Positions 12,773 to 59,992 of a stretch of DNA of 64,000 nt are shown here, in pieces. Origin of the DNA: Romanomermis culicivorax (lineage: Eukaryota > Nematoda > Enoplea > Mermithida > Mermithidae). The DNA lies in the NCBI GenBank assembly GCA_963922205.1, contig CAWUHX010000084.1, positions 1,054,001 to 1,118,000 on the forward strand. Reading direction: 5' to 3'. Numbering within the stretch: position 1 is the first letter of the stretch; every line of letters starts with the position of its first letter. Made by a program: the position numbers and the translations under genes. The notes under the pieces are model-generated. The model was not told where the DNA came from and did no database searches. It was given only the letters and a program-made list of their open reading frames with translations.

Positions 12773-12815
12773 TTGAGATGTTTCGCCTGGTGCTGAGCAC
12801 CATCGGAGATCATCA
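12690..12815 (-). repeat. Short tandem repeat in the RNase H-integrase linker
   Basis: Three or four copies of a unit around GCCAGGTGCTGCACACCATCGG, spaced about 40-50 bp, encode repeated Asp-Gly-Ala-Gln-His-Leu-Ala-Arg-like peptides. The reading frame changes here between the RNase H side (ending at 12769) and the integrase side. Expansion or contraction of the array is a simple explanation for the shift. Confidence 0.65.
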
Positions 12816-14177: not shown

Positions 14178-14192
14178 AGCATTCGCCTCAAC

Positions 14193-14900: not shown

Positions 14901-15396
14901 TTCAATTTCGGTAGAGAGCTGATACTACATGACCTGGGTCAGGCATGGAGTCATCAAAGCTCGACTCTGGCGCATCGGTTGGCCTTGGTATTGGCAAACC
15001 AGTGCGTCAGAGTAATCCTACCAGAGCATAACCAACCGAGGCTTCCAGATTGGTCCCAAGAGTGAGATGAACCTAAACAGTAAGTACATGATCCGATCTT
15101 TCCCCGGAGCTCTGAGTAGCTCCTAATGATTCGACCTCAGCATCAGAGAGTGGTGGCACCTCTAGTACAGGGGATGCAGGTGCATCAGAATCACTAGGCT
15201 CGCGAAAACGGCCTTTCTCTAGTGTAACCGGAGAAACTCCAGGCGGGGGTCGAGGGCAGTTTGACCCTGACCTGGTCATAAAGTGACCACTGGCCCGTCT
15301 AGAAGAGGTCTGACTACCTCTGGTTGACCCACGGGATGAGGCAACTGAGGAAGCTCGCGAGTGTGGCCGAGAAATGGACGAAGTCCTTGATCTGGA
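14901..15396 (-). other. Element 1 linker between the two proteases
   Basis: About 500 bp with only a short open frame (15279-15073, 68 residues, Pro/Ser/Glu-rich). The composition suggests a disordered polyprotein linker broken by frame changes. No domain is recognised. Confidence 0.45.
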
Positions 15397-16488: not shown

Positions 16489-17892
16489 TCAGAAAATCCT
16501 CATAAAGTGATGGTCACACGGCACTTTTGGGCTGAATTTAGTGAGATCTGAGCCACCAGGGGTGGCAAAATAAAGGGTACCGCCAACCTGTACGGGTAGA
16601 TACTTGTAACAGTTGTCCCCCACTGAATACGAATGGTAGACATAAGTGGGGTTGACCTTTTGACATGGCCATATCGTCAGTGCTTCACCTGTAAATTCCG
16701 CCATCAGATCATTCCTTTGAAGGAATGCCCGGGCTCCTAGTGTAGGGTCAAAACAAAGCAACTGCCAAGTCAGATCAAGGTAGCACTGAGCATGAGAACA
16801 CAACTCAAGCCACATAAATCGAAAATTGTTAATTTCCGATTCTTTGATCTGCTGAGCCAGGTAGTTCAGTTTGGCATTGACGGGGTCAGGGATGGAGTCC
16901 TTTGCCAATCCAAACAACCTCTGGGTCAAAATAAATCTTCCGTGGATGCGTAGAAGAAGACCCTGATCCATTCGTACTGTGTTCAACCAGAGGTCAGGAC
17001 ACAACCGAAACATGCGAGAGTTTCCCGGGATCTTCAGGGCAACCTGCAAATCATCGATGATGATATGGTTCCCTGATACAGACGCAGTGTAACTACCCTG
17101 AGGTTGATAATGACACTGTACTGTAAAGTTTGCAGCAGGCCAAACAATTACCCCCTCAAGAGTAGTGCATTGACCTGCAGTGGGACTGCATCCACCTACA
17201 TCTCCTAAGGTACTTAGAGCTGTAGTGCCATCCCACGAAGCGACCCATCCCTGCTCAATGAAGAGGTTAGCCACTCTCTTGCAGACGTCATTGCAGCACC
17301 ATGAGTACATCACCTCCAATGTTTGGTTAGTGCTATAAAAGCCAGGACATATCTCCACAAGCTTTTGTAAACCAAACACCTTCATGCGATGCACCAGTGT
17401 ACACGCCGCAGGCGCTAGATGCTGAGTGGTAATGAGGTTTGCAGTAATGCCCCTAGATCCGAAAAAACCAGTGTTAGTACATACCTTATGGTTTCGCCAA
17501 GTACATTTCCATGCTAAAGTGGTGATTGGATCAGAAATAGGCACATATACTGTAACATTCATGCGTCCTGCACTCCACGAAGATTTTGGTGGCTTGCATT
17601 CAACTTTTTGAGGTAACTCAAGTGGATGACCGCTTCTTGAAAGATCACAAAATGGGTATTGAGTAGCATGTGTTGCGGAGCTCATTCCTAAGAACAGTAG
17701 TGTCACAAAGGCCCAATTTATTATATGCAGAATATTTACAAATGGTGCTCGTAAATATACACCAAAATGTACAGTTTTCACTCCTCGGGCGGCTTCATTC
17801 TTCGTCATCATCATCATCGGACGATATCGGATCCTCTCCGGGGAAGTTGATGACCAAGCCTCCCCATGGGTGGACTTCGCGAAGAACGCCAA
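16489..17892 (-). pseudogene. Env-like surface glycoprotein ectodomain
   Basis: A cysteine-rich secreted or membrane-type protein frame. The open frame begins at a TTG, but a run of four Met codons at about 17817-17806 offers natural starts. It is followed by a hydrophobic segment (FVTLLFLGMSSATHA) with a plausible signal cleavage after THA. The ectodomain of about 390 residues has many cysteines and NxS/T sites (for example NVT, NQT, NFT), and the run CTNTGFFGSRG suggests a conserved folded region. A TGA at 16489-16491 ends it just before the stretch holding the transmembrane anchor. It is analogous to env genes of errantivirus-like and nematode env-bearing retroelements. Which viral fusion-protein class it descends from cannot be told by eye. 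It lies upstream of pol, unlike standard env. Confidence 0.72.
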
Positions 17893-18367
17893 TCTTCGGG
17901 GACCGCGGGACGGTTGCCGTCAGAAATGGTGATGCCTCAGTGATGCTGAGGTCGTTGTTGATGGCGCGCAACGGTTCTCCAAAGGCATAGGTGACCGGTT
18001 GCTGTTGAGCGATCGCGGCCAGTGTTTGGGCTCCTGTCGTCCTTGTTGTTGGTGACGTATCAACAACTGCTGTGGGCCCCACGTTGCGACTGGCTTCCTC
18101 CACAGCCCGGCGGACGGCGTCCACTGCCGGTGATGACGGTTCACCGTCCAACAGGATCTTGTCCACTGGGATGGTGCGAATAGTTCTGTTGGCAATAAAC
18201 TCGAGCGCCCGTCGAGCGATGTCGGGTCCCAATATCCGCAACGCTGCTGGCTCCGATAGCACCATGTCGGCAGCCATAAGCACCTCAACCTCGAATGGCT
18301 CGTTGAGTAGCGCCCATGGGAGGTGCGGATATTTCTTGGCCAAATCCCTTGACCACATGGCCCGCAT
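17795..18367 (-). CDS. Acidic-tailed 190-aa ORF between gag and env
   Basis: Starts at a true ATG and stays open for 190 codons. It is rich in Ala/Pro/Arg/Val with predicted helices in the first ~90 residues, then a Thr/Gln/Pro-rich middle and a final run of five Asp and two Glu. No signal peptide or transmembrane span is visible. Its last ~23 bases overlap the Met-run that could start the env-like frame, so the two are stacked in different frames; the acidic tail and the Met run come from the same GAT repeats. It follows gag and a candidate 86-bp intron (18391-18476). It may be a gag-derived, matrix-like or accessory protein. No family was recognised. Confidence 0.5.
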
Positions 18368-18390
18368 CGCATCAGTGACGGATGAGGAAT

Positions 18391-18476
18391 CTGTAAATGA
18401 GAAATCATTAAAGCCGGTGACTTATAAGGATATCTGATTTTCAGACCTGAAATGTCCTAAAAAGAAGGTAGTTTAC
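18391..18476 (-). other. Candidate 86-bp intron in element 1
   Basis: On the minus strand the donor ATAG|GTAAAC (exon end 18477) and the acceptor TTTCTCATTTACAG|ATTCC (exon resumes at 18390) match animal splice consensus, and the length suits a small invertebrate intron. It lies exactly between the end of the gag frame and the start of the 190-residue ORF. Joining does not directly extend the present gag frame into that ORF, so it may serve a subgenomic message or be coincidental. Confidence 0.4.
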
Positions 18477-19351
18477 CTATCAGATTCATCGATTCCAATT
18501 GACTGATGACCTCCAACACGGAGTCCGTAGGAATTCGGGGTGGCGGTTTTTGGGCGATAGCATGCACCGGGGGGCGCCTGTGTACCTTCCGTCGGTCGAT
18601 ACGATGGGATTACCCTGACGTTGCCAGTCGTTTTCAGTGTCGTTGATGGGTTTACGTTGACCAGCATTGCGTTTTTCGGTGGCGGCAGCGGAAAGGCTGA
18701 CGATGGAGTCAATGCCCAAACCACTGCGGCAGCTGAAAACCCAATACTGATTACACAGACAGGATAACACAGTTGTGAGTGATCCGCCAGATGTTCAGCC
18801 AGAACTTCATTATCCAGATCAAACAGATTTGGATGAGCAAGACCATCGGTAGCCCCTACAGTATTATTTTGCCGTGGAGGTGACTGATATTGGTTCCCTG
18901 TCCGGTGAGGAGTTGGATTAGCATAACGCCGAAAATTTCCACTTGCTCCCTGAGGAGAGTAACCAGAATTACCAAAGTTAGTCTCACCAGGCAATGTCGA
19001 AATCCGATTTGGGCAGGCCGAAGCCCTGTGCACTCGTAACTTTTGGCAATGCAGGCAGGGTCTGTCGCATCGGTTGGTCGGGTGCGCTCTTGTTCGACAA
19101 AAATAGCAACAGCTGGCGCCGGTGGCCGTGGTGGTGCTAGGGCCGGCGCTATTGGGATGTTGGGCCTGGCAATTAGCGTCATTGTGGGTGCAGCTTCCAT
19201 GGTAGGAGCACAATTGTAAATGTGCCCCTGACTGGCGATCGCCAGCGGTCTGGACACGCATCAACAGCGTCGTTGATGGCGTGGAATTTCTTGGAGGCAG
19301 CGCCGTTTGCTGAGCGGTAAGTCGGGCAATGTGAGCTGTAAGCCGGGCCAT
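18473..19351 (-). pseudogene. Element 1 gag, nucleocapsid part with two zinc knuckles
   Basis: The C-terminal portion of gag. Residues about 100-135 contain CYFCRTRAHPTNRC, a CX2CX4HX4C knuckle, and then CLHCQKLRVHRASAC, a CX2CX5HX4C variant. Such knuckles bind genomic RNA in retroviral and Ty3/gypsy nucleocapsids. The N-terminal part of the frame is Thr/Ala-rich, and the region after the knuckles is Gln/Asn/Pro-rich with a short hydrophobic stretch. The frame differs from the capsid part at 20124-19621, so at least one frameshift separates them in this copy. Confidence 0.8.
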
Positions 19352-19620
19352 CTCCGATTGTAAACATCAAATTTCGTCAGACGGCGTTGCCGGCGGACCT
19401 TGAGCAGTGCCCCTTTGATTCGACACTGACCTGACATTGTCTGCAGTCCTTTGTTCTGAAGAGAAAACAGCATTAGATGGGACAGTATACCTAATCTCAT
19501 CCCGAAAAATTTGCGATTCCACGTAACAGGCTGCTTTGAGGGTCTCTTTAAGAGTTGTAAACTCCCTGAACTTAATACTATCTCAAAGGACTGGTTTCAA
19601 CCCTCTCAGAAAGATAGGTT

Positions 19621-20124
19621 TTACAATTGAATCCCTAATGTCAGTCGCGAGATCCGGATAAGCCACTCTGGACAGTCTCTTAAGGTGCTCAACTCAGTCG
19701 GCTTCAGCAGGCGATCCTGGATCAACTGCTGATGCAGATCTGAGTCACGCCCTACTGGAAAGTCTTTCCTCAGAAAAGCTGTGAACTCTTCGTAGCGGGT
19801 AGACTGCGGAGTACTACTGCTAAAGTCCCAGTAGGATGCGAGAGCAGGACCTGTTAGGCAAGACTCCAGAAACGCGATTTTATATGCATGATCCGTTTCT
19901 GTTACTCCTTGAAGTGTAAAGAAATGGGTCAAGTGAGATATAAAATCCATTATGGACTCACCAAAAGCAGCTGAAAAGGCAGGAGGGGCCATGAAGCTGG
20001 ACACAGGTGGGTGCCTTCTGCCATTCATAGCCTCCAGCTTTTGGTTGAGTGGCCCAAGGGCATTCTCAAATGCAGCTGGGACCTTATTCTCAATCTGTGA
20101 AGGTAAATCAACTTCTGACTTCAT
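19621..20124 (-). pseudogene. Element 1 gag, capsid part
   Basis: A Retrotrans_gag-like capsid segment: FGESIMDFISHLTHFFTLQG, YKIAFLESCLTGPALASYW, then YEEFTAFLRKDFP and LHQQLIQDRL, the usual helical order of Ty3/gypsy capsids. The frame is open upstream of the first ATG to about 20300, where TTTCACAAAATAG|AGAC could be a splice acceptor, so the true start may lie further 5'. Downstream, the same protein sequence seems to continue in another frame (19620-19500) with a stop, so the copy is frameshifted before the zinc knuckles. Confidence 0.8.
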
Positions 20125-20300
20125 AGATGAGAATTTGTCTTCCTGTAAGGTATCTAAGACTGATAATCGTGCCTGTGAAGCTATACGATCAAACTGAATA
20201 GAGAGGGGCTCACTTGTCTGCTTAATCTTAGTACTAAGGCGACAGGAACGTCTAGGTGTCTCTATTTTGTGAAAGTGAAGTAAGTGTTACTTTTGTAGTC

Positions 20301-26979: not shown

Positions 26980-27740
26980 TCACATACCCAATCCCGGGAA
27001 ATCGGTGCCTAGTCCTCCACTGCTGCCCATGCCAGCACCGATTCCTAATTCTTTCGAAATGCCTAATCCTCCGCTAGGCATAGTGGACATTCCTGGTATA
27101 CCGCCGCCTATGCCTGTCATACTGCCGACACCCAAGCCGTTCCCCAGGCCCGGAACGCCACCTACGCCTGTTGAACTTCCAACACCCAGGCCACTGCCAA
27201 ATCCTGGAATACCACCTATGCCTGTTGAGCTACCAACGCCCAGACCATTTCCTAAACCGGGGATGCCACTGACGCCAGTGGAACTTCCAACGCCGAGACC
27301 ACTACCAAGTCCTGGAATACCGCCTACCCCTGTTGCGCTTCCAACGCCCAGACCACTTCCTAGACCGGGGATCCCACCGATGCCAGTGGAACTGCCAACG
27401 CCGAGACTGCCAAGTCCAGGGATACCACCTACGCCTGTTGAGCTTCCAACGCCCAGACCATTTCCTAAACCGGGGATGCCACTGACGCCAGTGGAACTTC
27501 CAACGCCGAGACCTCTACCAAGTCCTGGAATACCGCCTACGCCTGTTACGCTTCCAACGCCCAGATCACTTCCTAGTCCAGGTATGCCACTGACGCCAGT
27601 AGAACTGCCAACGCCAAGACCACTGCCAAGTCCTGGGATACCACCTACGCCTGTTGAGCTTCCAACGCCCAGACCACTTCCTAGTCTAGGGATGCCGTCT
27701 ACATTAGTGGAACTACCGACACCAAGGCCGCTTCCAAGTC
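26980..27740 (-). CDS. Glycine-rich repeat protein, downstream exon
   Basis: The exon begins after the acceptor TTTTTTCAG (intron end 27741) and runs to an in-frame TGA at 26980. It encodes about a dozen imperfect repeats of 18-19 residues close to GLGSGLGVGSSTGVGGIP, ending in a Met/Gly-rich tail and FPGLGM. The regular Gly at every second or third place is typical of extracellular structural proteins such as cuticle, silk or shell-matrix proteins, but a specific role cannot be assigned. The same GLGVGSSTGV motif closes the upstream exon, and splicing (phase 1) joins them in frame as Gly-Leu-Gly, strong support that both belong to one gene. GGTATGT near the stop could be a donor instead, so the true C-terminus is uncertain. 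Confidence 0.75.
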
Positions 27741-28005
27741 CTGAAAAAACAATCCGTAGATTGACTTCTAAATTTTGATTTTTATTTCTTGTTGGATTCC
27801 AAAAAATCATCTTTGAAAGAAGATACCGCTCTGCTTTAACTAAAAATGACTAATCATTATCTGTACAGAGTCGATTTTTTAGCATCAGATAGATTTTTGA
27901 TCTACTTTTTTTCTTTAAGGGACGAAGTATCAATATTATCTGAAAATTGCATTGAAAATCATGTTGTTGTCCTGATTATCAAATGAAGTTTCGTTTTTCA
28001 TTTAC
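27741..28005 (-). other. Intron (265 bp) of the glycine-rich gene
   Basis: On the minus strand it runs from the donor CCAG|GTAAAT (exon end 28006) to the acceptor TTTTTTCAG|GACTTGG (exon start 27740). It is AT-rich, phase 1, and keeps the repeat frame open across the join. Confidence 0.75.
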
Positions 28006-43440: not shown

Positions 43441-45427
43441 GATACTCGAAATCATGTTATCAAGTGTTTGTTGACACTATTCAACAAAATAAAATCATCC
43501 AAAGTTTTTGGATTTAAACTGTAATTTTTTCCCAAAAATTTTTTTCCAAAAAAAATTTTCCCAAAAGGGTCAAAAAATGCAATTTTTGCCCAATTTTTTA
43601 AGCTGGGGGGCTCACAACATTTGGGTACTAGGTTCAGCTGGGTTGGGAGGAGGGTTCCCCTCAACCCCTCAATTACAGGTAAGGTTCAGTGTATAACTAT
43701 GGAGTTTGATTCAGTTAGTATTTATCTTGGCTCTTTTATAATGATTTTTTTCTAATGTAAATTATGCACTTATAATCATAAAATTCGTTAATATAGAACA
43801 CCCTTGCAAACAAGCAGGGTGTCAACATTATATTTAGTGCCAAAGGGCATTTATTTTCACTAGTTGTTAACATAATATGAAAAGTCGCTCTATACAGAAA
43901 GTGTTTTGGGTATTCAAAATTTTCACTTCATTCAATTAGAAAAAGAATAGAAGAAATCAATAAAAATATTTGCTATTTTTAACCTTTTTTCATTGTATGT
44001 GTTCATTAATTATCTTATCGAAGTTCACCATCAGAAGTGTAAAGGGATAATTTATTTGAAATTGCACTATCTGAACTGGAATTCAGAATTCGTGATAATA
44101 ATGACAGAACGCGGCCCTTGTGAACATTGGCTTTGCTTAAAAAAAATGCACATCACAATCAAAGCGGACCACAAAAAATTATATCCCACCCGATGTACTG
44201 GCTGAGTCCCCCCAGAATTTCTATGTTGTGCTAGTATTATTAGGAAGCATGATAAAATAATACTTGAAAAATGTCATGATTCACAATTTATGTAAAAAAC
44301 ATGATTGAACTGCATATACAGATGTTATAGTATGCATCAATATGTTATAGCAACAATATATTACAGCTTTGTAACGATGATTTGTCCGAAAATTTCGTTG
44401 AGTTGAACTTCGAAAGCGGTGCCGCGAAAATTACAAAAATCTCTTCATACTTCCTAGGCGCTACCGCGCGGCGCCGCGAGTATGAATAGGACAAGCGGTA
44501 CCGCGCGGAACCTCGCGGTGAAGTATGACAGGGTCTATAATTTTGTAAGAATTTTGTAGTAAATTTCTAATTGTCAATTTTTTTAAATTAGCTATAGATC
44601 TAGTCTTTTTTAAATGCTTGTAACGCAAACATGCTGAAAGTAACTACGCACGCAGAATTTCGTGCTGAGGTAATATCGTTGTTGACTGTATGTCAGGAAT
44701 CGATTAACCGACGGCGGTAAACTATGACTAAACTCTAAACTAAGCTTGATAAATCTTTTAACAATAATTTCCGTCCGGTGAGAGAAATGTCAAAAAAAAT
44801 TTCCCACGGCTAAAAAAATATTCGCTCCGCGCAGAAAAAGCTAAGGAAAATACCAGAGCTGCAGCGCGATCCGCCGGATTTTTAATTTCTCCTCAGAATT
44901 TTTTTCTCTTTTTGTCTCCTTAGAACTAAATCAATTGTGTGAATCAACTCCAAGCATTAAAATTGTGCAGATGAGGAAAAATCTGCAATTGTGTCAATGT
45001 AATATAGGGCCTATATATTATATTATAGCCTTGACTGAATCAGGAGGGTTTTAAAGGCATTTTTGTATGTTTCATCCTGTTGGTCCATTTGTTGATGGTG
45101 CCCAAAGATTGTAACCAGAACCCAGTTGCGCTAAACAAATCTAAGCTCGAGCTCAAGATAATCTCGAATTAAAGGTCGACCATCTCAGTTTCAGCGATTG
45201 CACTAACATGTCGATGATCTGAAGTTTTGTGTAAAATCAACGTTGTCAGGATTATCACAAGCTCGATGTCAAGATTATCTGCAGCTCAAGCTGTTGAATT
45301 GCACTAACATTTTCTCATAATTGTTTATGTGTGAAGCAAATTAGTAAAAATGTCCACGACTCCCGAATTCAAGCTTAAACCTCAGTATCAGTTAATCGTG
45401 AAGTGAGGGTCGTTAGTGAAACTACTG
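43441..45427. other. Gene-free stretch with a GC-rich palindromic patch
   Basis: AT-rich overall, except 44455-44522, where GCGCTACCGCGCGGCGCCGCG and GCGGTACCGCGCGG form local dyads. The second copy of the dispersed ~100-bp repeat lies at 44915-45015. No gene seen. Confidence 0.4.
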
Positions 45428-46214
45428 TGTCAAATAAGCGGTCCTATGCCATCGGCTACCTAGCTGTGGTTCTCGGGAGATCCAATCTGGTACGGCCCCT
45501 GACGCTAACCCGGTACTAGATGCAATCCTACTGCAGGTCCCAGAGACTTGAAGAACAAAGATATTTATTTTGGAACTGACAAAAGTGTAAATACAACTGT
45601 GAGCAACTAATAAACGGAATACAAAGTGCCAAAGTAAGAACACGACGCTGAATTCCTCCCTAAGTCGCTGACCCTTCTTTCTGTCCCTGTGCACAGAGCC
45701 CCAGGGACTTCCGGGTATCTTAATCCAGGACCCAAGCTGAAAGTCTGTCCAAAGACAAAACAGTCTACCTAACTCCTGAACAACCACTCACTACTCTCCT
45801 TGATCGAGATTGAACGTCGAAAATCTCCTCAGGCCGCGGGAGTCTTCAAGATGAGTCCGCGACGCGAAAATCAAAACACACAATAATGCGAACGGTGAAT
45901 GCGTCCTCAATCCTTCCTCAGTCGCAGCGAGTCTTCTCCGAAGACGCAATAAGGGACGCGACCAGACAATAGTAATACGTAAAATTAATAATGAAAAAAC
46001 ATATTGCAACGCGTCTAACATGGACTTGCCAGTTGCATGCAAAACATTCGCATCACCATTTATGTATTTTGAACCAAAAATGTATGTGACACAAACCGTT
46101 TTACCGGTTTGTTTACCTAAGAATAAATGAAATCACTTTAACAACAAAGGAACTTTAGAAAATGAAAGTGAGGTAATTAGAGGACCAAAGGTCGGAGGAA
46201 TTGACCCTCTGACA
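45428..46214 (-). repeat. 3' LTR of element 2 (about 787 bp)
   Basis: On the element strand it starts TGTCAGAGGG right after a purine tract and ends TTTGACA, so the termini are the inverted TGTCA/TGACA. No second copy exists in the window because the 5' end of the element is lost, so the borders come from the tract and termini rather than from alignment. Confidence 0.7.
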
Positions 46215-46226
46215 TCCCTCCCCCCC
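46215..46226 (-). promoter_or_regulatory. Polypurine tract of element 2
   Basis: On the element strand GGGGGGGAGGGA lies immediately before the LTR start TGTCAGAGG. Such tracts resist RNase H and prime plus-strand DNA synthesis. Position and composition are textbook for the 3'LTR border. Confidence 0.8.
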
Positions 46227-46261
46227 AAAGGCAAGACTTTTCCCCCCAGCGAAGGGAAAAG

Positions 46262-47384: not shown

Positions 47385-48536
47385 TTACTTTTGTCTATGA
47401 CCACTGTGGTCCCGCCCAGGCTGACCGATACCTTGTTCTCTTTTCAACGGCGATATATAATCAGGGTTCCCTGTCGACGGCGGTCCTTGCAGCAGTTGCA
47501 TTCCCGTTGACGTCCCCGGAATTTCCATCCTTTCTTCACCTTGTACGTTACATATCGGCGGAATTAGTGTCAGTGGTGGCATTTGAATGCCGGGCGGAAC
47601 CAAGAATGGATGATAATATTGTGGTTGCCCCGGCTGGAATTGCAAAACCGGAAATTGCGATACTTGAAATTGCTGTGGCGGAGGTATCATTGTATTGGGC
47701 AACACTTGGCCTGAAAAGAGAGGGCGATTCATACAGTCAACTCCTACCATGGGCAATCCCGGATAATTCGGCGGCATGTACGGTAATTGCTGCTGCTGCG
47801 CTATCATCATTGCATTCGGGTCGGCCATCGATACTCCTTGTTGACTCGCTTCATTGGCTCTAGGCCTATCCAGTGAAGCCGTTCGACTGGAGTGGGACAC
47901 GTCCAATCGATCATCGTGTTGATAATATCCCGGTGTCCTCTTTCGGCTTCGAGATTTTCGGTTCCCTTCCCTTTCTTCCATTTCTCTTTTCTCTTTCTCC
48001 TTTCGCTCGAACTTTTCTTCGTATTCTTCAATTTCTTTGCGCCAGCTCTCTTCTTCATTTTCTCTTCGTCTTTTCTCTTTCGACATCGATTTTTCATGGC
48101 GACTTTCGTCCCGGTGCCGACTTTCGTATCTTCTTTTCCTTTCCTTCTCTGGCGTCGCCGATTTTTCTCTTTTCCGCTCATCACCATCTTTCCTAGTCCA
48201 ATGTTTGGATACCTTACCTGCCGCAGGCCTGCTGTAGGGGTGCTTGACTCGGTACCCGATTTTCTTTTTTAATCTTCTCTCGACTTCCAACAGATCATGA
48301 GCCTTCTTCCTATCGATAACTTCCCAAAAACGTATCCGGGGATCTGTATTATCAGTTTCTTTCTTCCAAACTTGAATATTCGTATATTTTGGTTCCGGGT
48401 CTTTTTTATCCTGCAGGACGGCTTTAGCAATTGTATATGCTAACCCTGACGCCTTAGACTGGCAAGAGGCGTATAACGTATGAAAATTACTACCTGCTCC
48501 TTCTTGTCTGGCATTGAATTCGCGGCGCAGTTTCAT
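47385..48536 (-). CDS. Arg/Glu-rich and Pro/Gln-rich accessory protein of element 2
   Basis: A 383-codon frame beginning at an ATG six bases after the TAA of the exonuclease frame and in the same frame, so it could be a separate product or a readthrough extension. Residues 1-100 are mixed and possibly folded. About 105-215 is extremely rich in Arg, Lys and Glu, with RKRRYESRHRDESRHEKS-type runs resembling the charged RS/RE regions of splicing-associated proteins. About 235-345 is Pro/Gln/Met-rich (QQQQLPYMPPNYPG) and likely disordered. No catalytic motif or membrane span is seen. It may bind RNA or host factors, but that is inference. The frame has no internal stops despite the wrecked pol upstream. 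Confidence 0.6.
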   Translation of the reverse strand: MKLRREFNARQEGAGSNFHTLYASCQSKASGLAYTIAKAVLQDKKDPEPKYTNIQVWKKETDNTDPRIRFWEVIDRKKAHDLLEVERRLKKKIGYRVKHPYSRPAAGKVSKHWTRKDGDERKREKSATPEKERKRRYESRHRDESRHEKSMSKEKRRRENEEESWRKEIEEYEEKFERKEKEKREMEEREGNRKSRSRKRTPGYYQHDDRLDVSHSSRTASLDRPRANEASQQGVSMADPNAMMIAQQQQLPYMPPNYPGLPMVGVDCMNRPLFSGQVLPNTMIPPPQQFQVSQFPVLQFQPGQPQYYHPFLVPPGIQMPPLTLIPPICNVQGEERMEIPGTSTGMQLLQGPPSTGNPDYISPLKREQGIGQPGRDHSGHRQK

Positions 48537-48542
48537 GGTAAC

Positions 48543-51407
48543 TTAAGCATGAGCCTGATAGTGGAATCCAGCGAAATTCTGTGGAATCCTGCCCAACCGC
48601 GACAATTTCATGAATAAACAGGCGCAAGCCCATACCGCGGCTTCATACGCTTTCCCCGGGGGCCGAGTTGTAGCCCATTCTGTCAATTGATGTTCGAAAA
48701 TGTTCCACAATTTTTCAGGTAAATTCGCCTGCAATACGTGAAATTGCAGTTCATAGTAACGTATTGTTTCTATTTCGACTCCCGCTTCATCGTAGATACG
48801 ATTTATCAAGTCTGTGGTCATAAGAGCCACCTCTTCATCCAAAGCAGGATCCATGTGCGCGAGATATTTCTGAACACACGGATTTGACAGAGATACTCTA
48901 CCATATTGGAAATCTACGACGTATTTTCCCTCTTTCGAAGCTTTTTTCAAGACTTGCCCACATTTCCCGAGGCCTCGTCGATACTTGATTTTGTCATTTG
49001 GGTTTCCTGGCGGTTGTTGGAACTTTCCGCTTTTCACTTTGTCCAATTCAGCTTTGTTCTCCTCTTTTGCTATTCGCTTCTCTTTCTCTTGTCTTTTGCT
49101 GTACATTACTCTCGCAAACTTTCCAGGGTTGGTTATATTTTCTACACTCTGCCCACCAGCCTTGGCATATACCAGTGGTGCGGGCAAAACATTAGTTTCG
49201 GGAGCTTTGTCCTCACTCCCGATTTCGGAAACAACTTCCACATATGGTTCTTCGCTTGTCTCTTCTTCTTTGGCGTTGACATTTTCCAATTGCTTTGCTA
49301 GCTCAATCGCAGCCTTTCCATATTTCTCTTTTTCTAACGTTTCTATCTTTTCTTTCATCTCTTTTATCTGCTCGGTCAGCTTTTCCACATCGGGTTGTAT
49401 TTCGCTTTCGGGCTCGACTATTTCCATCAGTTTTTCTTCCTCTACGACATTTTTACTATCGTTAGCGGGTATATTGGCAATAGGGGGATCCGCGATGATC
49501 ACTTCCACAGGCTTTTCCTGTTCCATTTCGGTACCTGAAACATTCAAATTATCGATTTTAGATGGTACATTTTCTGTCTGTTCCTTCGAAGTTCTTTCCG
49601 TAGGACCCTGGCTAGCCGGGACCACAACTTCTACTTGAGGAAACAGATCCGAGTCCTCCCACTTAGTTACAGATTTGAAAGTTGTAGAAGTGCTGGGGAC
49701 CCATAGGTCCTTAGCCTCGAATATAGACGTGGAAACATTCCAATAAATGAGATTTTTGCTAGCCGTGTGAACATGCAAAAAATGAAACACATTATAAAAG
49801 TTATGATTCAAAAAATAAATCGAATTTTCGCGTAAATCTGTTTCTATTTCTTCTTCGGGTTCTCTTAAGGAACGCGGTATCCATTTTATAGGCAGTACGC
49901 AGAAAATATTTTGCACCGACTTCTGCGTGCGTACCTTCGGATATCGTTCCATCATTTGTTCTGCTTGTTCGGTCATTTTGTTATTCACAAGATCTTGGCC
50001 CATCCATTTCATAAATTCGATTCGCTCTTGTTCATTTCTCCATATGGAGGACCACATACCCGACGTAAATCCTGGCACCCAAGATCTCCATTCTTGCGCC
50101 GAATGAGGCCACAAGAAATAAATGAGGGGATTTATGTTCTTCTCATACAACTCCTTGACCACAGGGACAATCGATCGATTGATTTGTGGATGGTAATAGT
50201 CCCTAAGCGACGATACCTGTTCCCGTATATTATTCGTAAAGTGAATCACTTTGCTAGGCCACTTTCCTTGCTTCATTTCCATCTCTCTTGGCTCTATTGG
50301 TCGTCCGAATTGCCGCGCAGCTAGTATATCTTCTAAATCCCAATCGTTGGTGGGCCCTTCTTCCGACTCTTCCGTATCTTTCCTTTTCCGTGATGCTTTT
50401 ACCTTTCTTTCTACCCACGGGTACCAACTGCGGGGTACTGGTTGCGGGTCGATGTCGCTATTCGAGAAATGCGGAGGGCAATAGAAATTTCCAGATGCTT
50501 GCTCTTCCGATAATTTATAAGTTGCGATTGCTTCCCCACGCATCATGAAATATAACGCATTGATATTGCCCGTCATTTCCTCTACTCCGTAGGCGCCTTT
50601 CCACTGCGGGTCCGTATATTTATCTTCGAATGTTTCTCGAAATCTTGGGGCTAAATCGGCAACCAACTCTGGTTCCATCGTATCGTGACGATATAACTTG
50701 AAACAGTTTTGCACATCAATAGCGAACCCGTATCGTAGCAACGTCAAGAAACATAGAAGGGACCCGCGCGCGTCGAGCGTCGCGTATCGCAAAACTTCTA
50801 TGTTTAATTTGCCCGCTTCCATTAGCTGCCGAAATTCTAGAGAGCTCAATTGGCCCCACGAAATTTTAAAAGCATCAGGCCACAAAAATAGAATTTCCGT
50901 CATGAGGGCCTTTAAGTTCAGGGCTTCCGGACTAATTCCTATCATCCTTGTCTTTGCTTTATCCTTCATCTCGGCCAATACGATGTCTAGATCATAAACA
51001 CAGCACGACAAGATGTAATCGATATTGTCACGCTTTTTTCGGGCTAGCTCTTTTTCTTGATCTAAATATCCGAATCTAGTCAAGACTAGCGTGATGTCTT
51101 CTCGAATGTGAAAACCGACGATGATATTCTCTTCGCGAAAAATTGTGTTATATATCTTGTGAAAATGTTCTCTGTCCCAAAACTTTAAATCTATTATAAA
51201 GTTCTTCCCACATATCGTCGAAATCGTCAAGAGCCTCAAGGCGTCGCTGGGTTTCAAACCCCCCGTTTTGGGTTTCCTCCCACTTTCGGTATCTAGTGCG
51301 ATGACTACTCGTCCTCTGAATTTCGATTGGTTTATTGCCTTATTAAAAGCTTTAACATTTTCGGGTGCGAGAAACAAAGGTTCCTTCGATGGCTGTATGA
51401 GGCCCAC
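48543..51407 (-). CDS. Large protein with N-terminal DEDDy 3'-5' exonuclease domain
   Basis: An uninterrupted 954-codon frame. The first ~230 residues show the DEDDy exonuclease pattern of the WRN/EXD2/RNase D/MUT-7 group: ExoI VVIALDTESG (Asp39, Glu41), ExoII VGFHIREDITLV (Asp104), and ExoIII RYATLDARGSLL (Tyr208, Asp212, the Y-x3-D spacing), with the usual LRLLTISTICGKNFIIDL strand between. Such enzymes remove nucleotides from 3' ends of RNA or DNA using two metals. The middle (about 240-600) has aromatic-rich segments of unknown fold. About 674-715 is a coiled coil (EKLTEQIKEMKEKIETLEKE), and the last 100 residues are helical. The first codon is GTG, and the frame is open upstream to a TAG near 51520 without any ATG, so the start is probably on a spliced upstream exon. 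It lies between integrase and the 3'LTR. Confidence 0.72.
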   Translation of the reverse strand: MGLIQPSKEPLFLAPENVKAFNKAINQSKFRGRVVIALDTESGRKPKTGGLKPSDALRLLTISTICGKNFIIDLKFWDREHFHKIYNTIFREENIIVGFHIREDITLVLTRFGYLDQEKELARKKRDNIDYILSCCVYDLDIVLAEMKDKAKTRMIGISPEALNLKALMTEILFLWPDAFKISWGQLSSLEFRQLMEAGKLNIEVLRYATLDARGSLLCFLTLLRYGFAIDVQNCFKLYRHDTMEPELVADLAPRFRETFEDKYTDPQWKGAYGVEEMTGNINALYFMMRGEAIATYKLSEEQASGNFYCPPHFSNSDIDPQPVPRSWYPWVERKVKASRKRKDTEESEEGPTNDWDLEDILAARQFGRPIEPREMEMKQGKWPSKVIHFTNNIREQVSSLRDYYHPQINRSIVPVVKELYEKNINPLIYFLWPHSAQEWRSWVPGFTSGMWSSIWRNEQERIEFMKWMGQDLVNNKMTEQAEQMMERYPKVRTQKSVQNIFCVLPIKWIPRSLREPEEEIETDLRENSIYFLNHNFYNVFHFLHVHTASKNLIYWNVSTSIFEAKDLWVPSTSTTFKSVTKWEDSDLFPQVEVVVPASQGPTERTSKEQTENVPSKIDNLNVSGTEMEQEKPVEVIIADPPIANIPANDSKNVVEEEKLMEIVEPESEIQPDVEKLTEQIKEMKEKIETLEKEKYGKAAIELAKQLENVNAKEEETSEEPYVEVVSEIGSEDKAPETNVLPAPLVYAKAGGQSVENITNPGKFARVMYSKRQEKEKRIAKEENKAELDKVKSGKFQQPPGNPNDKIKYRRGLGKCGQVLKKASKEGKYVVDFQYGRVSLSNPCVQKYLAHMDPALDEEVALMTTDLINRIYDEAGVEIETIRYYELQFHVLQANLPEKLWNIFEHQLTEWATTRPPGKAYEAAVWACACLFMKLSRLGRIPQNFAGFHYQAHA

Positions 51408-52158
51408 CGAACAACGACGTAAAATAATTGAAAATGTCTGTTGACCGCACCAATCTTCGCACGTTATAATCTTAAAATTTTCACATAATTTTTTACCTAT
51501 TCTTTTTTGGTACTAACTTTCGAAATAAAAATGACTCAAATGCTCAAGAATAGATTTGGACATAGGCGAGTTGATCAGTCTCTCAAATACCCAAAATCCT
51601 CGGCATATAAATTGCCGCGCGGTCAATTTAGAGTCCCATTCCGAATAAAAATTTCTACCACATATTTTACCCTTTAAACACTTACTACTGATTTGAAAAT
51701 TTGTATTATCTTGGCGGTCTTGCGGCTGCCCGAAACTATTGTCTACTTTCGACGAAATTGGACGTGGCCATATCGCCTTCGAACTTGGACTTCAAAAATC
51801 CTCCAGTCGACGAAAATAATTAATATAGTAATATTTTGCAAATGAAATCTAAAAAATAGCTCCATAACGCCTTCGATTTTATGGGATCTGTAACTATGAG
51901 AGGGTTTTCTCGGGACTTATAAACATTTTGATTTCTTCACACCGAGCGCGTGAAAAAATATAATTTTGCCCATTAAAAAAATTTTCCGGCGTCGTAGTTT
52001 TTGATAACTGCCTAAAACTGCCATAAAATTGCCAAAAATAAGTTAGAACGATAAAAAATTTAAAGGGAAAAATGGGAAAGGTATAATACAGGGAACATTA
52101 AAAAAGGACACATAAAACAAAATTTGATCACAACGCACAAATAAAACGATAAAATGAA
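51408..52158 (-). other. Element 2 gap between integrase and exonuclease frame
   Basis: About 750 AT-rich bases. No LTR-like termini were seen, arguing that pol and the exonuclease frame belong to one element. AATAG|GTAAAA near 51499 (donor-like) and GTCAACAG near 51440 (acceptor-like) are weak splice candidates for supplying a start codon. Confidence 0.4.
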
Positions 52159-53658
52159 TTATGAACTACAGTAAAAATCGGGTGTCCGCGTAACAAAAGG
52201 CATTACGCGATTTACGGAGACTATTTGTACAGGCGAATCTGGTTTCCCAGTGCGGCGTATTTTTATGACATTTTTATCTAAATTCTTTGTTTCAATTACT
52301 TCATAGGGGCCGTCATTTGTAGTGTCGGCTTTCCCTTTTATAATTCCTTTCTGATAGAGGACAAGTTCACCCATTTGGAACGTCTTTTCGCGAGCCTTCC
52401 TATCATACTGTAATTTTCTTTCGACCGCCGCTTTTTTCATGATTTTCGTTTATAATTTTGTACGTGTTAAGGAGGTGTTCCGTTAACATGTATTTATACG
52501 TCTCGTAATTGTTCTGGACAATTATTGGCCTTGCGATATCATTATCTATCTGAAACCTTGCCTCATGTCCGTACAATAGACTATGGGGGGAACTTTTCGT
52601 AGTTTTGTGTGGCGTAATCCGGATACGCAAATAAAATCTGCTCCAGATAATGGGGCCAGTCATCCGGGTCGGTAATTGCCACTCTCCTAATCTGCTCAAT
52701 TAGCGTCCTATTGAATCTTTCCACCATACCATTACATTGCGGGTGGTATGGTGTCGTGTTTATTTTCTTTATTTTCAGGAGATCGCACACATCGCGCATT
52801 AGTTCGGACATGTACGCTGAGCCCTGGTCGCTCAGCAAGTGTTTTGGCGTCCCGTGGGTATAAATTACTTTTTCCATGAACGCCTTTACTATAGTATCGG
52901 CTTTTTGGTCGGGAATACATTTGGCCTCCACCCATTTCATGAAATAATCCATAAATACAATAACATATGGCCTCTTTTCTCGTAAGGGCGAAATACTAAC
53001 CACATCGGTAGCTACTATTTCCCAAGGGTAGGAAACAGGTATGGGGTTGAGTGGTTGAATTGGGTTTCGCTATGGGGCGACATAATTGGCATACGACGCA
53101 GGATTTTATCCATTTAATAATGTCGTCTTCCATATTTGACCACCAAAATTTATTCCCAATTGCGGCAATAATTCTATCTATCCCTTGATGGCCCATTAAT
53201 GTATCGCCATGGTATTGATGCAAAACAAGGTGCCTAAGCTTGGAGGGAATTACTAACTGATTTCTTCCATGGATATTTTCTCGGTATAATACTTCGTTTT
53301 CCAAGTGAAAACTGTTGAAGTATTTTTTTGAGCTGTTTTCACCGATATTCCGGAAAATATCCACCAACTTCGAGTCTAATCGCTGTTGTTTCTTGATCAA
53401 TTCCAGAGAGAATAAGTCGGACTCCTTTTTTGCTTCCTCTGGTGTTTGATCTATTTCTTTTTGCATTGGTGGTGGAGGGTCAATAAATGTTTCTTGTGTC
53501 TCTGGTTCAAGCATCTGTCTTGTCATGGCTCTTGTTACCGCCATGCATTCCGGGTTCCGTATCCACATTTTTGTCCTCGATTTCTTCGTTACTTTCTCGT
53601 TTCTTGTTTCGGATCTTTTCTTTCTCCTCGGATCTTGATAAAAAATCTGCAAAGGCAT
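52159..53658 (-). pseudogene. Element 2 integrase, frameshifted
   Basis: The three integrase modules are present but spread over several frames. The zinc-binding HHCC module is in the 53658 frame (HQYHGDTLMGHQG, then CVVCQLC). The catalytic core is in the 53003 frame: an Asp in VATD just upstream of it, Asp59 in LLSDQGSAY and Glu95 in GMVERFNR, so all three acidic residues remain. The C-terminal GPY/F module (NDGPYEVIE) is in the 52440 frame. At least three frame changes separate these pieces, so no intact enzyme is encoded. The module order is Ty3/gypsy-like. Confidence 0.88.
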
Positions 53659-53974
53659 TTTCGCGTCTGGCTACATATTCGAATGTATAGTTAAACTGTC
53701 CAAGATATAAAGCCCATTTCAATAACCTTTGATTTTGTTGTTTTTCTGCGGAGAGCCACGTAAGTGGTTTGTGGTCTGTTCTGATTGTGACCCTAAACCC
53801 CATAACGTAATGTCGGTATTGCTTGAATCCATAGACTACAGCTAAACACTCTCTTTCCGTTGTGGAATATCTTGTTTCGGCGTCGTTTAAAACTCTACTC
53901 GAATAGGCTATTGTCCAGCGATCGTTTTCCATTTCCTGGTATAAAATTGCACCTATCGCTGTCCCCTGACGCAT
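53507..53974 (-). pseudogene. Element 2 RNase H domain
   Basis: Carries AIGAILYQ, TTERECLAVVYGFKQYRHY (catalytic Glu), VTIRTDHKPLTWL (Asp) and NAFADFLSR near the end, the usual Ty3/gypsy RNase H series. The first strand with its Asp is in another frame just upstream (about 53955-53990), so a frameshift lies inside the domain. The C-terminal tail overlaps the start of the integrase frame in a different phase. Confidence 0.88.
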
Positions 53975-54004
53975 CAGTTTGAATTACAAATTTTCGCCGA
54001 TCCA

Positions 54005-55003
54005 TCAAATACTGGGATATCGCAGGAAAGGGTGCCCGTCATTAAGGGCGTTTTTTATACCTTTAAAAGCCGTTAATTGTTCCTCTGAAAGCTCGAACTT
54101 CTCCTTCCTATTCTTTTTTACGAGGGCTTTAAATAAAGGCTGGGCGATGAAAGCTAAGTTATGTATGAACCGTTTGGACCATTGTACTAATCCCAAAAAT
54201 TTTTGTAGCTGCTTGATAGACTTGGGTACTTCAAAATTTTTTACCGCTTCTATCTTCTGGGGATCAACTGACATTCCATTTTTATCCAATATGTGGCCTA
54301 AAAATTTTACTCTAGCTGGCATAAAGGAGCATTTGTCAGGTTTCAATGTAAGATTTGCGTTTGTCAGACATCGAAAAATAGTCTCTATATTTTCTAAATG
54401 CTCCTCGACCGTTTTTGAGAAAACTATCAAATCGTCGATATATACTAAACCATATTTTCCACACATAGGGATAAAGAATTCGCTCCATGAGACGCTGAAA
54501 TTCCGTGGGAGCATTTTTAAGCCCAAATGGCATTACTTTAAACTGGAAAAGACCGTCTTGGCATATAAATGCTGTCTTTTCCTTCCATTCTGAATGCATT
54601 GGTACCTGCCAGTACCCGGACTTTAAATCCAAAGTCGAAAAATAGCGTGCACCTCCTAATGCATCTAAGTAATCGTCAATTCGTGGTATCGGGAATTTAT
54701 CGTCTTTTCGTTACTTGGTTAATCCCTCTGTAGTCAACTACTGGTCTCCAAGTGCCATCTTTCTTGCCCACTAAAAACAATGGTGCGGCCCAAGGGCTTC
54801 CTAGAGGGCTCAATGACCCCTTTTTCCATCATATCCTTCACATGCTCACAGATAATATCTCTTTGCATTATAGGGGCTCTCCAGTAGTGCTTTTGGACCG
54901 GCAACGCGTCTCCTGTGTCGATTCTATGTTGTGCCTCATGAGTCATCGTCAGAGGGTCGTTCTTCATACTAAATGCGTGCCTATGTTTAAGTAGAACGTT
55001 CAT
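54005..55003 (-). pseudogene. Element 2 reverse transcriptase, frameshifted
   Basis: A Ty3/gypsy-type reverse transcriptase in at least three frames. The N-terminal part holds [19 protein letters not shown] and ending pieces of the first palm motif. The next frame holds [20 protein letters not shown] and [16 protein letters not shown]. The last holds the catalytic YIDD in [13 protein letters not shown], then KFLGHILDKNG and LQKFLGLVQW. The catalytic motifs themselves are unaltered, so the damage is chiefly small indels. Confidence 0.9.
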
Positions 55004-55128: not shown

Positions 55129-55866
55129 TCAAATTCTGGCCCCACGAATTTCGTTTTGGATTTTGCTATTAGCTCGTTTGCTACGCAATTTTATCCCCTT
55201 GTTGGTTTCGTTTATTAGTAGAATTCGGAAATTATTATCTCTGGCGTCTACAATTGAGGCGTCGACATCGAACAAAGTATTCTTCCCGGTTTCTTCTACC
55301 ACTATGGGACCCTTTGTCCAATCCTTTCTGTGGCCAAACCACAGCTTGTACAAAGGAAGTGGTATTCGGGGGAATGTATACGTCCCATTTTTTGTCCAAA
55401 TAAAAGTTTCCTCATTCATTTCGGTAATTCGCATTACTTGTTCTTGATCATCGTCACTTTCTAACTCAGGCAGATCTTCTTCCTTAATTTCCTCCTTTAT
55501 GGGTACATAATCCAAAACCATCGGATTTGTAGGAATTGGCAACCGCGGCGGTATTTGTGTATCGTCGAATAACGTTTCACTAATTATCTGTCTTTCTACA
55601 TTTGCTAGGCGTATGTGGCCTTTTCGAAAATCAATAGACGCCTGTATACTAGGATGGGTTAGAAAATCTAGACCCAATATAATACCTTCACTTAGGTTAT
55701 CTAGCAATGCGAATCTAGCGAGGAAATTTCCAAAACCAGTTCCAACGTATATGAATGTAGGACCATATGTCGTTACGCGTTTTCCAACCGCTGTTACTAC
55801 TGAATTCAAAATAGGAAATTTTGTCTTTGATATATTCAGTAATCTCGACGCTGTACCTGTCCTCAT
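55129..55866 (-). pseudogene. Element 2 aspartic protease remnant, 5'-truncated
   Basis: The C-terminal part of a retropepsin, followed by the usual protease-RT linker. GIILGLDFLTHPSI (residues 62-75) is the second hallmark. The active-site loop reads MRTGTASRLL, with Arg where the catalytic Asp of DTG should be. Because sequence upstream of this point is unrelated to the element, the simplest reading is that the truncation junction falls at the Thr-Gly and the Asp codon was lost. The acidic KEEIKEEDLPELESDDDQE stretch and a WFGHRKDW block follow. Confidence 0.75.
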
Positions 55867-55875
55867 AAAGCTAGA

Positions 55876-57340
55876 TACTGCATGAAAATAATCCCAACAT
55901 TGGGATCAGCTGAAACTGAGGATCAGCAATTTGATCCCCGTGCAGCCAACCTCAGGTTTTTGTAGTGCATAAGGACGCCCTCTTAACCATGGGCATAAGT
56001 TGTAAAAAAACGAAATGACTATAATTTGTCCACCCCTCACTGTTTTTCAGCTAGAAGGAGAGGCACAGTTTCGAATCAGTCAGGAGCTTAGACTACTACT
56101 AGTTTACCATTTCTCTACACTTGAGCAAAGTCAGCCATCAGCATCATTGCTTATAATTTTCATTTGAAAAAATTTTACTGTGGGTAACACAGTAAAAAGG
56201 GAAAGACAAAACGCACGGAGCTGCAGAATATACTTTTTCACAGGCATGGAAAATTTTTTAATAAAAAAGAATCAAAATACAATATGACAAAACTGGATAT
56301 TTTAAACTCTCGTCCAATTTCCCAAAAACCTATTCCACGCCTTTTTCCAGCTTAACAACTATTCGAGCAAGTATATTCTCCTTTTTCTGCCACATCGGGG
56401 CATTTTCCATTAGATTAGTTTGATATATCTAAGGAAACTAGCTTTTAAGCTGTAGGCTTAAGAGTCTGTTTTAACCTGGGCATGTGAATCACAGTCTTAA
56501 AGTATCATCTTCTCATTTTCAAGTAGTCATAATACTCATTGCTGGGGAATGCTAAGTTCTTGTTCAGGAATGACTTGCTACGATACAAGATTTCTATAAT
56601 AAAATCTACCAGTATGATTATACATCGGCATAGCTGGACTTGGGTTCAACTGGCTACAACTCGGTACCGGATGAGGTACATTCGGCACTAGTTTCTAGCA
56701 CAACATTAAAGTTAATGTCAGGGGTAATTTGATTGAATGACTGGGTAACGATACTCTATAATGAGTATTATTTTCCACAGTTCGATGCTGATTTTTTATA
56801 CTACATATTGAAAGTGTAGACTTTAAAATAAGATGGAAAATCAAATTTGATTGCATCTTGCCCACTATCTATGAGATAAATGTACTCAAATTCGGTTTTC
56901 TGCTCTTATTTGGTTTTGGCAACCACGAAAACGATTTTGGAAACAACCAACTTTATGGTTGACTGACCAGATTAATCCGTATAGTTTGTCCAGTTATGCA
57001 AGTAGACCGATTCTCCTTCAGCTCAATTCGAGGCAAATATATCACCATAAATATGATATAACAACGTTATCTAAACTTTATCTACATTTTATTTATGTGA
57101 GTTGATTGTTAGAAGCTAGAATTTAATCTACCACGCTAAGAATGCATCATAGAAGATAACATTTCTATTGGAATCATATGACATTCTTGCTGAACAAGCC
57201 AACAAAAATTCAGTCTCTTGCTGCATTTAACGTCGTAAGAGACGTTTTTGATTGAAAAAAACGTATCTACTATCTACTTAATTTGACCAGAAAACCTCCA
57301 GCCCCCAGCCAGTTTTGCCCTCCTTCCAGCCCGGCGGCCG
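55876..57340. other. Gene-free stretch with one dispersed-repeat copy
   Basis: AT-rich sequence. 56215-56420 matches part of the 4491-5225 repeat family (TTTTTCTGCCACATCGGGGCATTTTCC). Nothing else was recognised. Confidence 0.45.

Positions 57341-59629: not shown

Positions 59630-59992
<363 letters not shown>

What the first reader, a model, noticed from the sequence alone, without database searches (positions are those of the whole stretch)
48543..51407. DEDDy 3'-5' exonuclease carried by an LTR retroelement in the env position
Seen: ExoI (DTE, residues 39-41), ExoII (D104) and ExoIII (Y208-x3-D212) in order in a 954-codon frame located after integrase and before a polypurine tract and 3'LTR. 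Known: DEDDy exonucleases are cellular (WRN, EXD2, RNase D), and the C. elegans member MUT-7 acts in RNA silencing of transposons. Inference: the element may have captured such a nuclease to counter silencing, trim RNA or cDNA ends, or edit. I know of no standard Ty3/gypsy element with this.
Basis: partly seen in the sequence, partly recalled or inferred. Interest (0 to 1): 0.9.

Follow-up and report, generated by a model that had tools for sequence, protein, structure and literature searches.

The report
Exonuclease gene inside nematode LTR retrotransposon
A common LTR retrotransposon of a nematode that parasitises mosquito larvae carries, where a retrovirus keeps its envelope gene, a gene that begins with a diverged 3'-5' exonuclease-like domain; a similar arrangement is published for rotifers, and what the gene does is not known.

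Summary
The window's assembly (359,112,060 bases, 595 contigs) matches published Romanomermis culicivorax v2 figures. The ORF belongs to the element: in 20 of 20 other copies examined pol lies upstream and the same 3' end downstream, and 3 of 3 copies checked have paired 99% LTRs with 4-bp target duplications. The window copy is truncated and broken; 26 of 45 other scored copies have no stop in the match. DEDDy evidence: motifs in register with cellular DEDDy nucleases beyond shuffles, kept in a 25%-identical sister family, and dN/dS 0.09 in the domain. Against: no Pfam or PDB hit for the window protein, only marginal PF01612 hits in relatives, inconclusive structure prediction. A second integrase-linked repeat in the genome carries a clear DEDDy ORF (5.2e-11). 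DEDDy ORF3s are published for bdelloid rotifer LTR elements (PMC5408684 passages), so this is a new variant of a known kind. Capture from host MUT-7 is not shown. Function is inferred: siRNA antagonism (about 0.4) or RNA/cDNA 3'-end processing (about 0.3).

The parts
50643..51386 (-). DEDDy exonuclease-like domain, N-terminal part of ORF3 (ExoI 51299-51282, ExoII 51110-51093, ExoIII 50786-50763)
   Evidence: profile and family evidence
48546..51470 (-). ORF3 exon 2 up to the stop at 48543-48545 of this broken copy; no Pfam domain found; an acidic stretch (residues 631-780) looks coiled-coil-like by eye
47388..48542 (-). ORF3 C-terminal tail frame: Lys/Arg-rich then Pro/Gln-rich; continues the frame in UniRef relatives
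51686..51771 (-). ORF3 exon 1 (frame broken in this copy)
51471..51685 (-). Predicted intron of ORF3 (GTAAGT ... TTTTAAG); a donor/acceptor pair by pattern in 20 of 20 other copies examined
52584..53670 (-). Integrase: H2C2 zinc-binding and rve core (two frames in this copy)
53510..53983 (-). RNase H of pol
54008..54710 (-). Reverse transcriptase (two frames; YIDD 54442-54431)
55132..55905 (-). Protease end and linker to RT; upstream of here neither gag nor 5' LTR was found
   Evidence: no Pfam hit; the protease label is recalled from the motif
46215..46229 (-). Polypurine tract
   Evidence: same place before the 3' LTR in 3 of 3 copies
45428..46214 (-). 3' LTR (TGTCAG ... TGACA), about 787 bp
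   Evidence: 20 of 20 copies examined end within 45419-45452; LTR pairs of 782-789 aligned bp, 3 of 3

Best explanation
ORF3 is a real third gene of a multicopy Ty3/gypsy-type LTR retrotransposon family of (by assembly size) Romanomermis culicivorax. Its N-terminal domain is a diverged DEDDy-type (RNase D/WRN/MUT-7-like) 3'-5' exonuclease domain, followed by about 1100 residues of unknown kind, and it is probably made from a spliced mRNA, as env is. Shown: presence, linkage, LTR boundaries, splice-site pattern, kept catalytic-type residues, a purifying-selection signal. Inferred: recent activity (from 99% LTR pairs in 3 copies), that it is a working nuclease (about 0.7), and what it does. Mechanism I commit to (about 0.4): it trims or destroys the unprotected 3' ends of Dicer-made siRNAs or nascent silencing RNAs aimed at the element. 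Next most likely (about 0.3): processing of 3' ends of the element's own RNA or cDNA. The confidence given is for identity and linkage, not for the mechanism.
For: Linkage: all six pol segments in the same order and strand in 20 of 20 upstream pieces, collinear 3' ends in 20 of 20 downstream pieces (20 of the 45 other scored copies). Paired LTRs 98.98-99.49% identical and, read by eye from the printed ends, 4-bp duplications in 3 of 3. Copies: 46 scored of 3151 first-look candidates; 27 of 46 without a stop in the match, 18 of them with a frame of exactly 1361 codons. DEDDy: in alignment A3, PF01612 is the family matched by most members (3 of 14, E 0.014-0.13). Sister family C is homologous to ORF3 (blastp E 4e-25 to 2e-24, about 25% over 361-417 columns) and has PF01612 as its only Pfam hit at E up to 0.1 (5e-4 to 2e-3, 4 of 4; these four were picked from the PF01612 list). 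Profile-profile with six cellular DEDDy domains: family A 27.0, 0 of 300 column shuffles reach it (maximum 22.2), reversed 13.4; A+C 37.0, P 8.6e-5, 0 of 100 shuffles (maximum 26.9), all three Exo motifs aligned; PolA as positive control 44.2, ten negative controls 10.1-16.9. D, E, D, Y, D kept in 7 of 7 further DNA copies and in 4 of 4 family C copies (sequences). dN/dS of the domain 0.09 (ratio of means, 28 pairs of 8 copies). Family C lies downstream of an integrase 62% identical to the window's (1 of 1 locus checked). Mechanism: clade I nematodes are reported without piRNAs, and T. spiralis transposon siRNAs as Dicer products without 3' protection (PMC4323106 passages).
Against: The window protein and its exonuclease piece have no Pfam hit to PF01612 even at E 10 and no PDB hit beyond noise (family C likewise). 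PF01612 hits in relatives are marginal: none among nine whole relatives at E 1, 3 of 10 proteins or pieces, and unrelated families reach similar values in single members (Regnase_1_C 0.014, WipA 0.032; NCBIfam T4SS_Wip 0.013). Family C was found through PF01612, so its hits are not independent of that model; genome-wide their E-values are 0.04-0.08. AlphaFold models are poor (mean pLDDT 41.2 and 52.7) and neither Foldseek nor VIA listed a DEDDy structure among the rows shown. Among UniRef fragments plus the window the ExoIII Asp is kept in 10 of 14 and the ExoI Glu in 9 of 11 rows, no better than the average column. No activity, expression or small-RNA data were seen. Family A alone is not alignable beyond shuffles to family B, the clear DEDDy family (17.1 against up to 21.1), though A+C is (25.9 against up to 20.0). 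The siRNA chemistry is known for T. spiralis, not for this species.
Confidence: 0.85

Rival explanations
1. Catalysis-dependent housekeeping role: the nuclease trims 3' ends of the element's RNA or cDNA (for example non-templated ends before integration), or removes misprimed ends.
For: 3'-end processing is proposed for the rotifer DEDDy ORFs (PMC5408684, PMC6431247 passages). Catalytic-type residues kept.
Against: Most Ty3/gypsy elements do without it (recalled). It occupies the accessory position, not pol.
Confidence: 0.3
2. Pseudo-enzyme or RNA-binding/particle protein: the DEDDy domain only binds RNA (like Maelstrom or EXD1 as described in PMC5408684), and the long basic and Pro/Gln-rich tail serves packaging or transport.
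For: Long conserved non-nuclease part (dN/dS 0.07-0.17); basic tail (K+R 0.27-0.28); two fragments have Lys at the ExoI Glu (P0017, P0038).
Against: All five catalytic-type residues kept in 7 of 7 further DNA copies and in 4 of 4 copies of the 25%-identical family C.
Confidence: 0.15
3. It is an envelope-like or membrane protein that happens to show the motifs.
For: Env position and probable spliced expression.
Against: No stretch over 1.29 on a 19-residue Kyte-Doolittle window in the two frames scanned; profile evidence for DEDDy.
Confidence: 0.03
4. Another fold: a cysteine-protease fold of the Ulp1/YopJ kind (clan label recalled), as the weak structure hits suggest.
For: Foldseek probability up to 0.96 for AvrA over 97 columns, and several such proteases in the Foldseek and VIA lists.
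Against: Foldseek E 0.16 at best, on a model with mean pLDDT 52.7; the Cys of ICGKN in the matched part is not kept in all relatives; profile evidence favours DEDDy.
Confidence: 0.04

Closest known systems
DEDDy ORF3 of bdelloid rotifer Juno and Vesta LTR retrotransposons (Rodriguez et al. 2017, PMC5408684; passages seen)
   Same: LTR retrotransposon, DEDDy exonuclease in ORF3 after pol, acquired in more than one lineage of the same genome.
   Different: Nematode host; 1361-codon frame with a long C-terminal part of unknown kind; DEDDy domain so diverged that the window copy has no Pfam hit; many copies. Sequence relation to the rotifer ORFs not tested.
Terminons (rotifer Penelope-like elements) with DEDDy ORFs (PMC6431247; passages seen)
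   Same: Retroelement-borne DEDDy exonuclease.
   Different: Penelope-like, up to 40 kb.
Cellular DEDDy exonucleases: RNase D, NrnC, WRN, MUT-7 (Pfam PF01612)
   Same: Order and type of ExoI, ExoII and ExoIII motifs; profile similarity to RNase D, NrnC and PolA domains.
   Different: Below Pfam's cut-off; a long insert between ExoII and ExoIII; not a host gene.
Family B in the same genome (ORF of 608-609 codons in 5 of 12 loci, L134-L145)
   Same: DEDDy ORF downstream of an integrase-like ORF.
   Different: Clear PF01612 hit (5.2e-11, one copy scanned); neighbouring integrase-like ORFs only 26-36% identical to the window's; exonuclease not alignable to ORF3 alone beyond shuffles. LTRs not examined.

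Membership tests
DEDDy 3'-5' exonuclease (PF01612) | ExoI DxE, ExoII D, ExoIII YxxxD in order | tested here: met
   7 of 7 further DNA copies; 4 of 4 family C copies. UniRef fragments show losses
DEDDy 3'-5' exonuclease (PF01612) | Profile similarity beyond chance | tested here: met
   0 of 300 and 0 of 100 column shuffles reach the score; motifs in register
DEDDy 3'-5' exonuclease (PF01612) | Pfam curated cut-off (23.6 bits) | tested here: not met
   Window: no hit. Relatives 12.5-15.6 bits. Family C 18.3-20.3 bits; one family C place is listed at 24 bits 'with its neighbours in the frame'. I therefore call ORF3 a diverged DEDDy-like domain, not a PF01612 member
DEDDy 3'-5' exonuclease (PF01612) | RNase H-like fold | tested here: inconclusive
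   pLDDT 41.2 and 52.7; no DEDDy structure among the rows shown
DEDDy 3'-5' exonuclease (PF01612) | Metal-dependent 3'-5' nuclease activity | not testable with these tools
   needs purified protein
Ty3/gypsy-type LTR retrotransposon | Order RT, RNase H, integrase with matching Pfam domains | tested here: met
   (window); same order in 20 of 20 other copies examined. No RT tree was built
Ty3/gypsy-type LTR retrotransposon | Paired LTRs, TG..CA ends, short target duplication | tested here: met
   3 of 3 other copies examined; in the window only the 3' LTR was found
Bdelloid-type DEDDy ORF3 | DEDDy ORF between integrase and 3' LTR | tested here: met
Bdelloid-type DEDDy ORF3 | Sequence homology to Juno/Vesta ORF3 | not tested
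   rotifer sequences were not at hand
Retroviral-type envelope | Transmembrane/fusion stretch | tested here: not met
   highest 19-residue Kyte-Doolittle mean 1.29 in the window's two ORF3 frames; other copies not scanned
Host MUT-7 / EXD2 capture | Closest relationship to the host's own MUT-7/EXD2 rather than other DEDDy groups | not tested
   no tree was built; ORF3 is near the limit of profile detection

The most novel reading that the evidence does not exclude
LTR-type retroelements of a nematode that has lost piRNAs repeatedly took up DEDDy exonucleases (ORF3 of families A/C and, separately, family B) as transposon-encoded suppressors of RNA silencing that destroy unprotected Dicer siRNAs, which would be an animal transposon counterpart of plant-virus silencing suppressors and could explain the spread of these elements.
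Probability: 0.25. Interest if true: 0.85.

Novelty: new variant of a known kind. Interest (0 to 1): 0.6.

Why it matters
It extends retrotransposon-borne DEDDy exonucleases from rotifers to a nematode, apparently in two unrelated integrase-linked lineages, with many open copies of one of them, and shows nuclease-type residues kept between sister families at 25% identity and a purifying-selection signal (dN/dS 0.09). The rotifer paper states that the intragenomic evolution of its extra ORFs shows no significant departure from neutrality (the ORFs it resequenced were env- and GDSL-like; passages). Because nematodes of this clade are reported to lack piRNAs and, in Trichinella, to silence transposons through Dicer siRNAs, the family offers a testable case of whether a transposon carries its own nuclease against silencing.

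Tried and rejected
Pfam and PDB searches with the window protein: nothing useful. Database of 5.8 billion proteins: 1, 24 and 32 hits, all named R. culicivorax (in only the 7998 candidates sharing most words were scored, so relatives elsewhere are not excluded). NCBIfam: no exonuclease. First AlphaFold model and its Foldseek list: not usable. Second model: better N-terminal half, but the best structural neighbours are proteases of the Ulp1/YopJ kind at E 0.16; rejected on motifs and profiles. A cellular DEDDy set from genome contigs gave only bacterial RNase D close to E. coli's in the 80 kept loci and was not used. Alignment searches of genome contigs and viral contigs were not run because the alignments were not conserved enough. 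Conservation of motif residues among UniRef fragments does not stand out from other columns, so it was not used as evidence. Adding more fragments to the family profile lowered the score to 23.2 and lost ExoIII; still 0 of 300 shuffles reached it. With genome copies only, family A scores 24.9 and family C 23.4 against cellular DEDDy. A alone is not alignable to B (17.1; shuffles up to 21.1 of 200; 14.4 with genome copies), C is (25.1). Pfam did not confirm the integrase label beside family B in 2 of 2 ORFs scanned (rve_3 only at 0.038); it rests on blastp to the window's integrase (E 2.7e-10 to 2e-25). The idea that ORF3 is a neighbouring unrelated gene was rejected. Literature searches. In their listings only papers of the rotifer group pair DEDDy with retrotransposon ORFs, and no paper on an R. 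culicivorax ORF3 showed; of the ten papers I saw passages of two, and PMC5718144 was seen only as a listing.
Full report
What is there. On the minus strand of the window, pol runs from about 55905 to 52584 (RT, RNase H, H2C2 and integrase by Pfam), followed by the 989-codon frame 51512-48543, a further frame 47388-48542, a polypurine tract at 46229-46215 and an LTR from 46214. The frame has ALDTES, HIREDI and YATLDARG in the order of a DEDDy exonuclease. The window's self-comparison finds no second LTR, and the frames listed upstream of 55905 show nothing gag-like by eye, so this copy looks 5'-truncated.

The gene is larger than reported. UniRef fragments map to 51749-51684 and then to 51471-51385; the window has GTAAGT at 51685 and TTTTAAG ending at 51471, and a donor/acceptor pair by pattern in the same place in 20 of 20 other copies examined. 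So ORF3 most likely starts near 51771, is spliced over 215 nt, and continues into the tail; 18 of the 46 scored genomic matches are stop-free in a frame of exactly 1361 codons. The window copy is broken at two places in its reading frame, at the 48543 stop, and in pol. Two UniRef gene models join ORF3 to other parts of the element: P0016 to the protease-RT linker, and P0026, by eye, to a piece of gag.

Is it part of the element? The assembly has 359,112,060 bases in 595 contigs, the figures published for R. culicivorax v2 (359.1 Mb, 595 scaffolds, passage in PMC10879605). I took 20 of the 45 other scored copies (rows 2-21). All 20 have the six pol segments upstream on the same strand and in the same order at similar distance, and all 20 match the window downstream to 45419-45452 and no further, apart from one short separate match in one of them. 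For three (rows 12-14) the far upstream piece holds a matching LTR: 782-789 bp aligned at 98.98-99.49%; read by eye from the printed ends, the target duplications are TTTC, AGAA and AAAA; spans 13586-13601 bp. A 723-codon frame, open at the end of the piece, follows the 5' LTR in L131; it has no gag Pfam hit, and gag is my reading from its place. This is decisive for linkage and suggests recent insertions.

Is it a DEDDy domain? Alone, the window protein gives no PF01612 or PDB hit. Support comes from relatives, and some of it is thin. Nine whole relatives gave no PF01612 at E 1. Scanned as trimmed or single-domain sequences, PF01612 is the family matched by most members of alignment A3 (3 of 14, best E 0.014), at E 0.014, 0.036 and 0.13 over profile positions 8-109 (3 of 10 scanned); Regnase_1_C also reaches 0.014 in one member and the NCBIfam Wip model 0.013. 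Two UniRef relatives carry the name 3'-5' exonuclease domain-containing protein. A profile-profile alignment of A3 with six cellular DEDDy domains (A4) scores 27.0, against at most 22.2 in 300 column shuffles and 13.4 reversed; ten unrelated proteins or parts score 10.1-16.9 and PolA, a true DEDDy domain, 44.2. Searching the genome with PF01612 gave 103 matches. I looked at four weak ones with long frames (E 0.04-0.08 there); all four are one sister family, C: homologous to ORF3 over 361-417 columns at about 25% (blastp E 4e-25 to 2e-24), each with PF01612 as its only Pfam hit up to E 0.1 (5e-4 to 2e-3), and with D, E, D, Y, D aligned to those of ORF3. Because they were picked through PF01612, the hit itself is not independent; their homology to ORF3 and the aligned motifs are. 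A+C together score 37.0 against cellular DEDDy (P 8.6e-5; shuffles at most 26.9 of 100) with all three motifs in register, and 25.9 against family B (shuffles at most 20.0 of 100). The one family C locus checked sits downstream of an integrase 62% identical to the window's, so ORF3 has probably stayed with this pol lineage while diverging faster than it.

Is it functional? Among the window copy and seven others, dN/dS (ratio of means) is 0.09 in the domain and 0.09, 0.17 and 0.07 in the following parts (28 pairs; some of these copies carry stops, which works against a low ratio). All five motif residues are kept in the seven. On the other side, UniRef fragments plus the window show losses (ExoIII Asp 10 of 14, ExoI Glu 9 of 11). 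Structure prediction did not help. I judge enzyme activity likely (0.7) but unshown.

Family B. Of the 12 best PF01612 matches fetched, 8 carry one and the same exonuclease ORF by pattern, 5 of the 12 with 608-609 codons; 12 of the 103 rows have a frame of 608-610. One copy scanned hits PF01612 at 5.2e-11, and its 8 PDB matches are all DEDDy-type proteins by name or by the RNase D comparison. In 8 of 12 loci a neighbouring ORF resembles the window's integrase at 26-36%, although Pfam confirmed that label in neither of the two scanned. It looks like a second, unrelated retroelement lineage with a DEDDy gene after integrase; its LTRs were not examined.

Mechanism. PMC4323106 (passages) reports that clade I nematodes lack piRNAs, that R. 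culicivorax shows no Piwi and no 5'-triphosphate small RNAs but has DNA methylation machinery, and that in Trichinella transposon siRNAs look like Dicer products without 2'-O-methyl protection. A 3'-5' exonuclease would be a fitting counter-weapon there; this is inference. The rotifer authors proposed RNA 3'-end processing and doubted that a MUT-7-like self-silencing role would last (passages). MUT-7's 22G context (recalled) appears absent here.

Novelty. DEDDy ORF3s in LTR retrotransposons are known from bdelloid rotifers, acquired at least twice there. New here are the host group, the size and divergence of the ORF, a second integrase-linked DEDDy lineage in the same nematode, the copy number, and the selection signal. 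I file it as a new variant of a known kind.

Noticed in passing
window 11306-20286, minus strand: A second Ty3/gypsy-like element with an ORF matching a mononegavirus-type fusion glycoprotein (PF24664, E 1e-13, 16492-17919) placed between a weakly Ty3_capsid-like ORF (19624-20286, E 1.5e-3) and protease/RT, not after integrase; a weak second protease-like match (E 0.037) lies in 15400-16488.
   Followed up: partly
L134-L145 (own genome): Family B: 103 PF01612 matches in the genome, 12 of them with a frame of 608-610 codons; 8 of 12 fetched loci have an integrase-like ORF alongside.
   Followed up: partly
L146-L150: Family C: diverged sister of ORF3, two of its four places with frames of 1396-1398 codons, and in one locus an integrase 62% identical to the window's.
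   Followed up: partly
UniRef fragments P0017 and P0038: Both have Lys where ExoI has Glu: a possible sub-lineage with a lost catalytic residue.
   Followed up: no
window 59632-59992: (CTA)n microsatellite of about 120 units.
   Followed up: no
window 27157-27743: 54/108-nt tandem array open in both strands, Pro- or Gly-rich translations.
   Followed up: no
G000:C209:307041-309881 and 319855-322695: Two ORF3 copies with the same score and strand 12.8 kb apart, and likewise two on C551 46 kb apart: possible tandem or segmental duplication.
   Followed up: no
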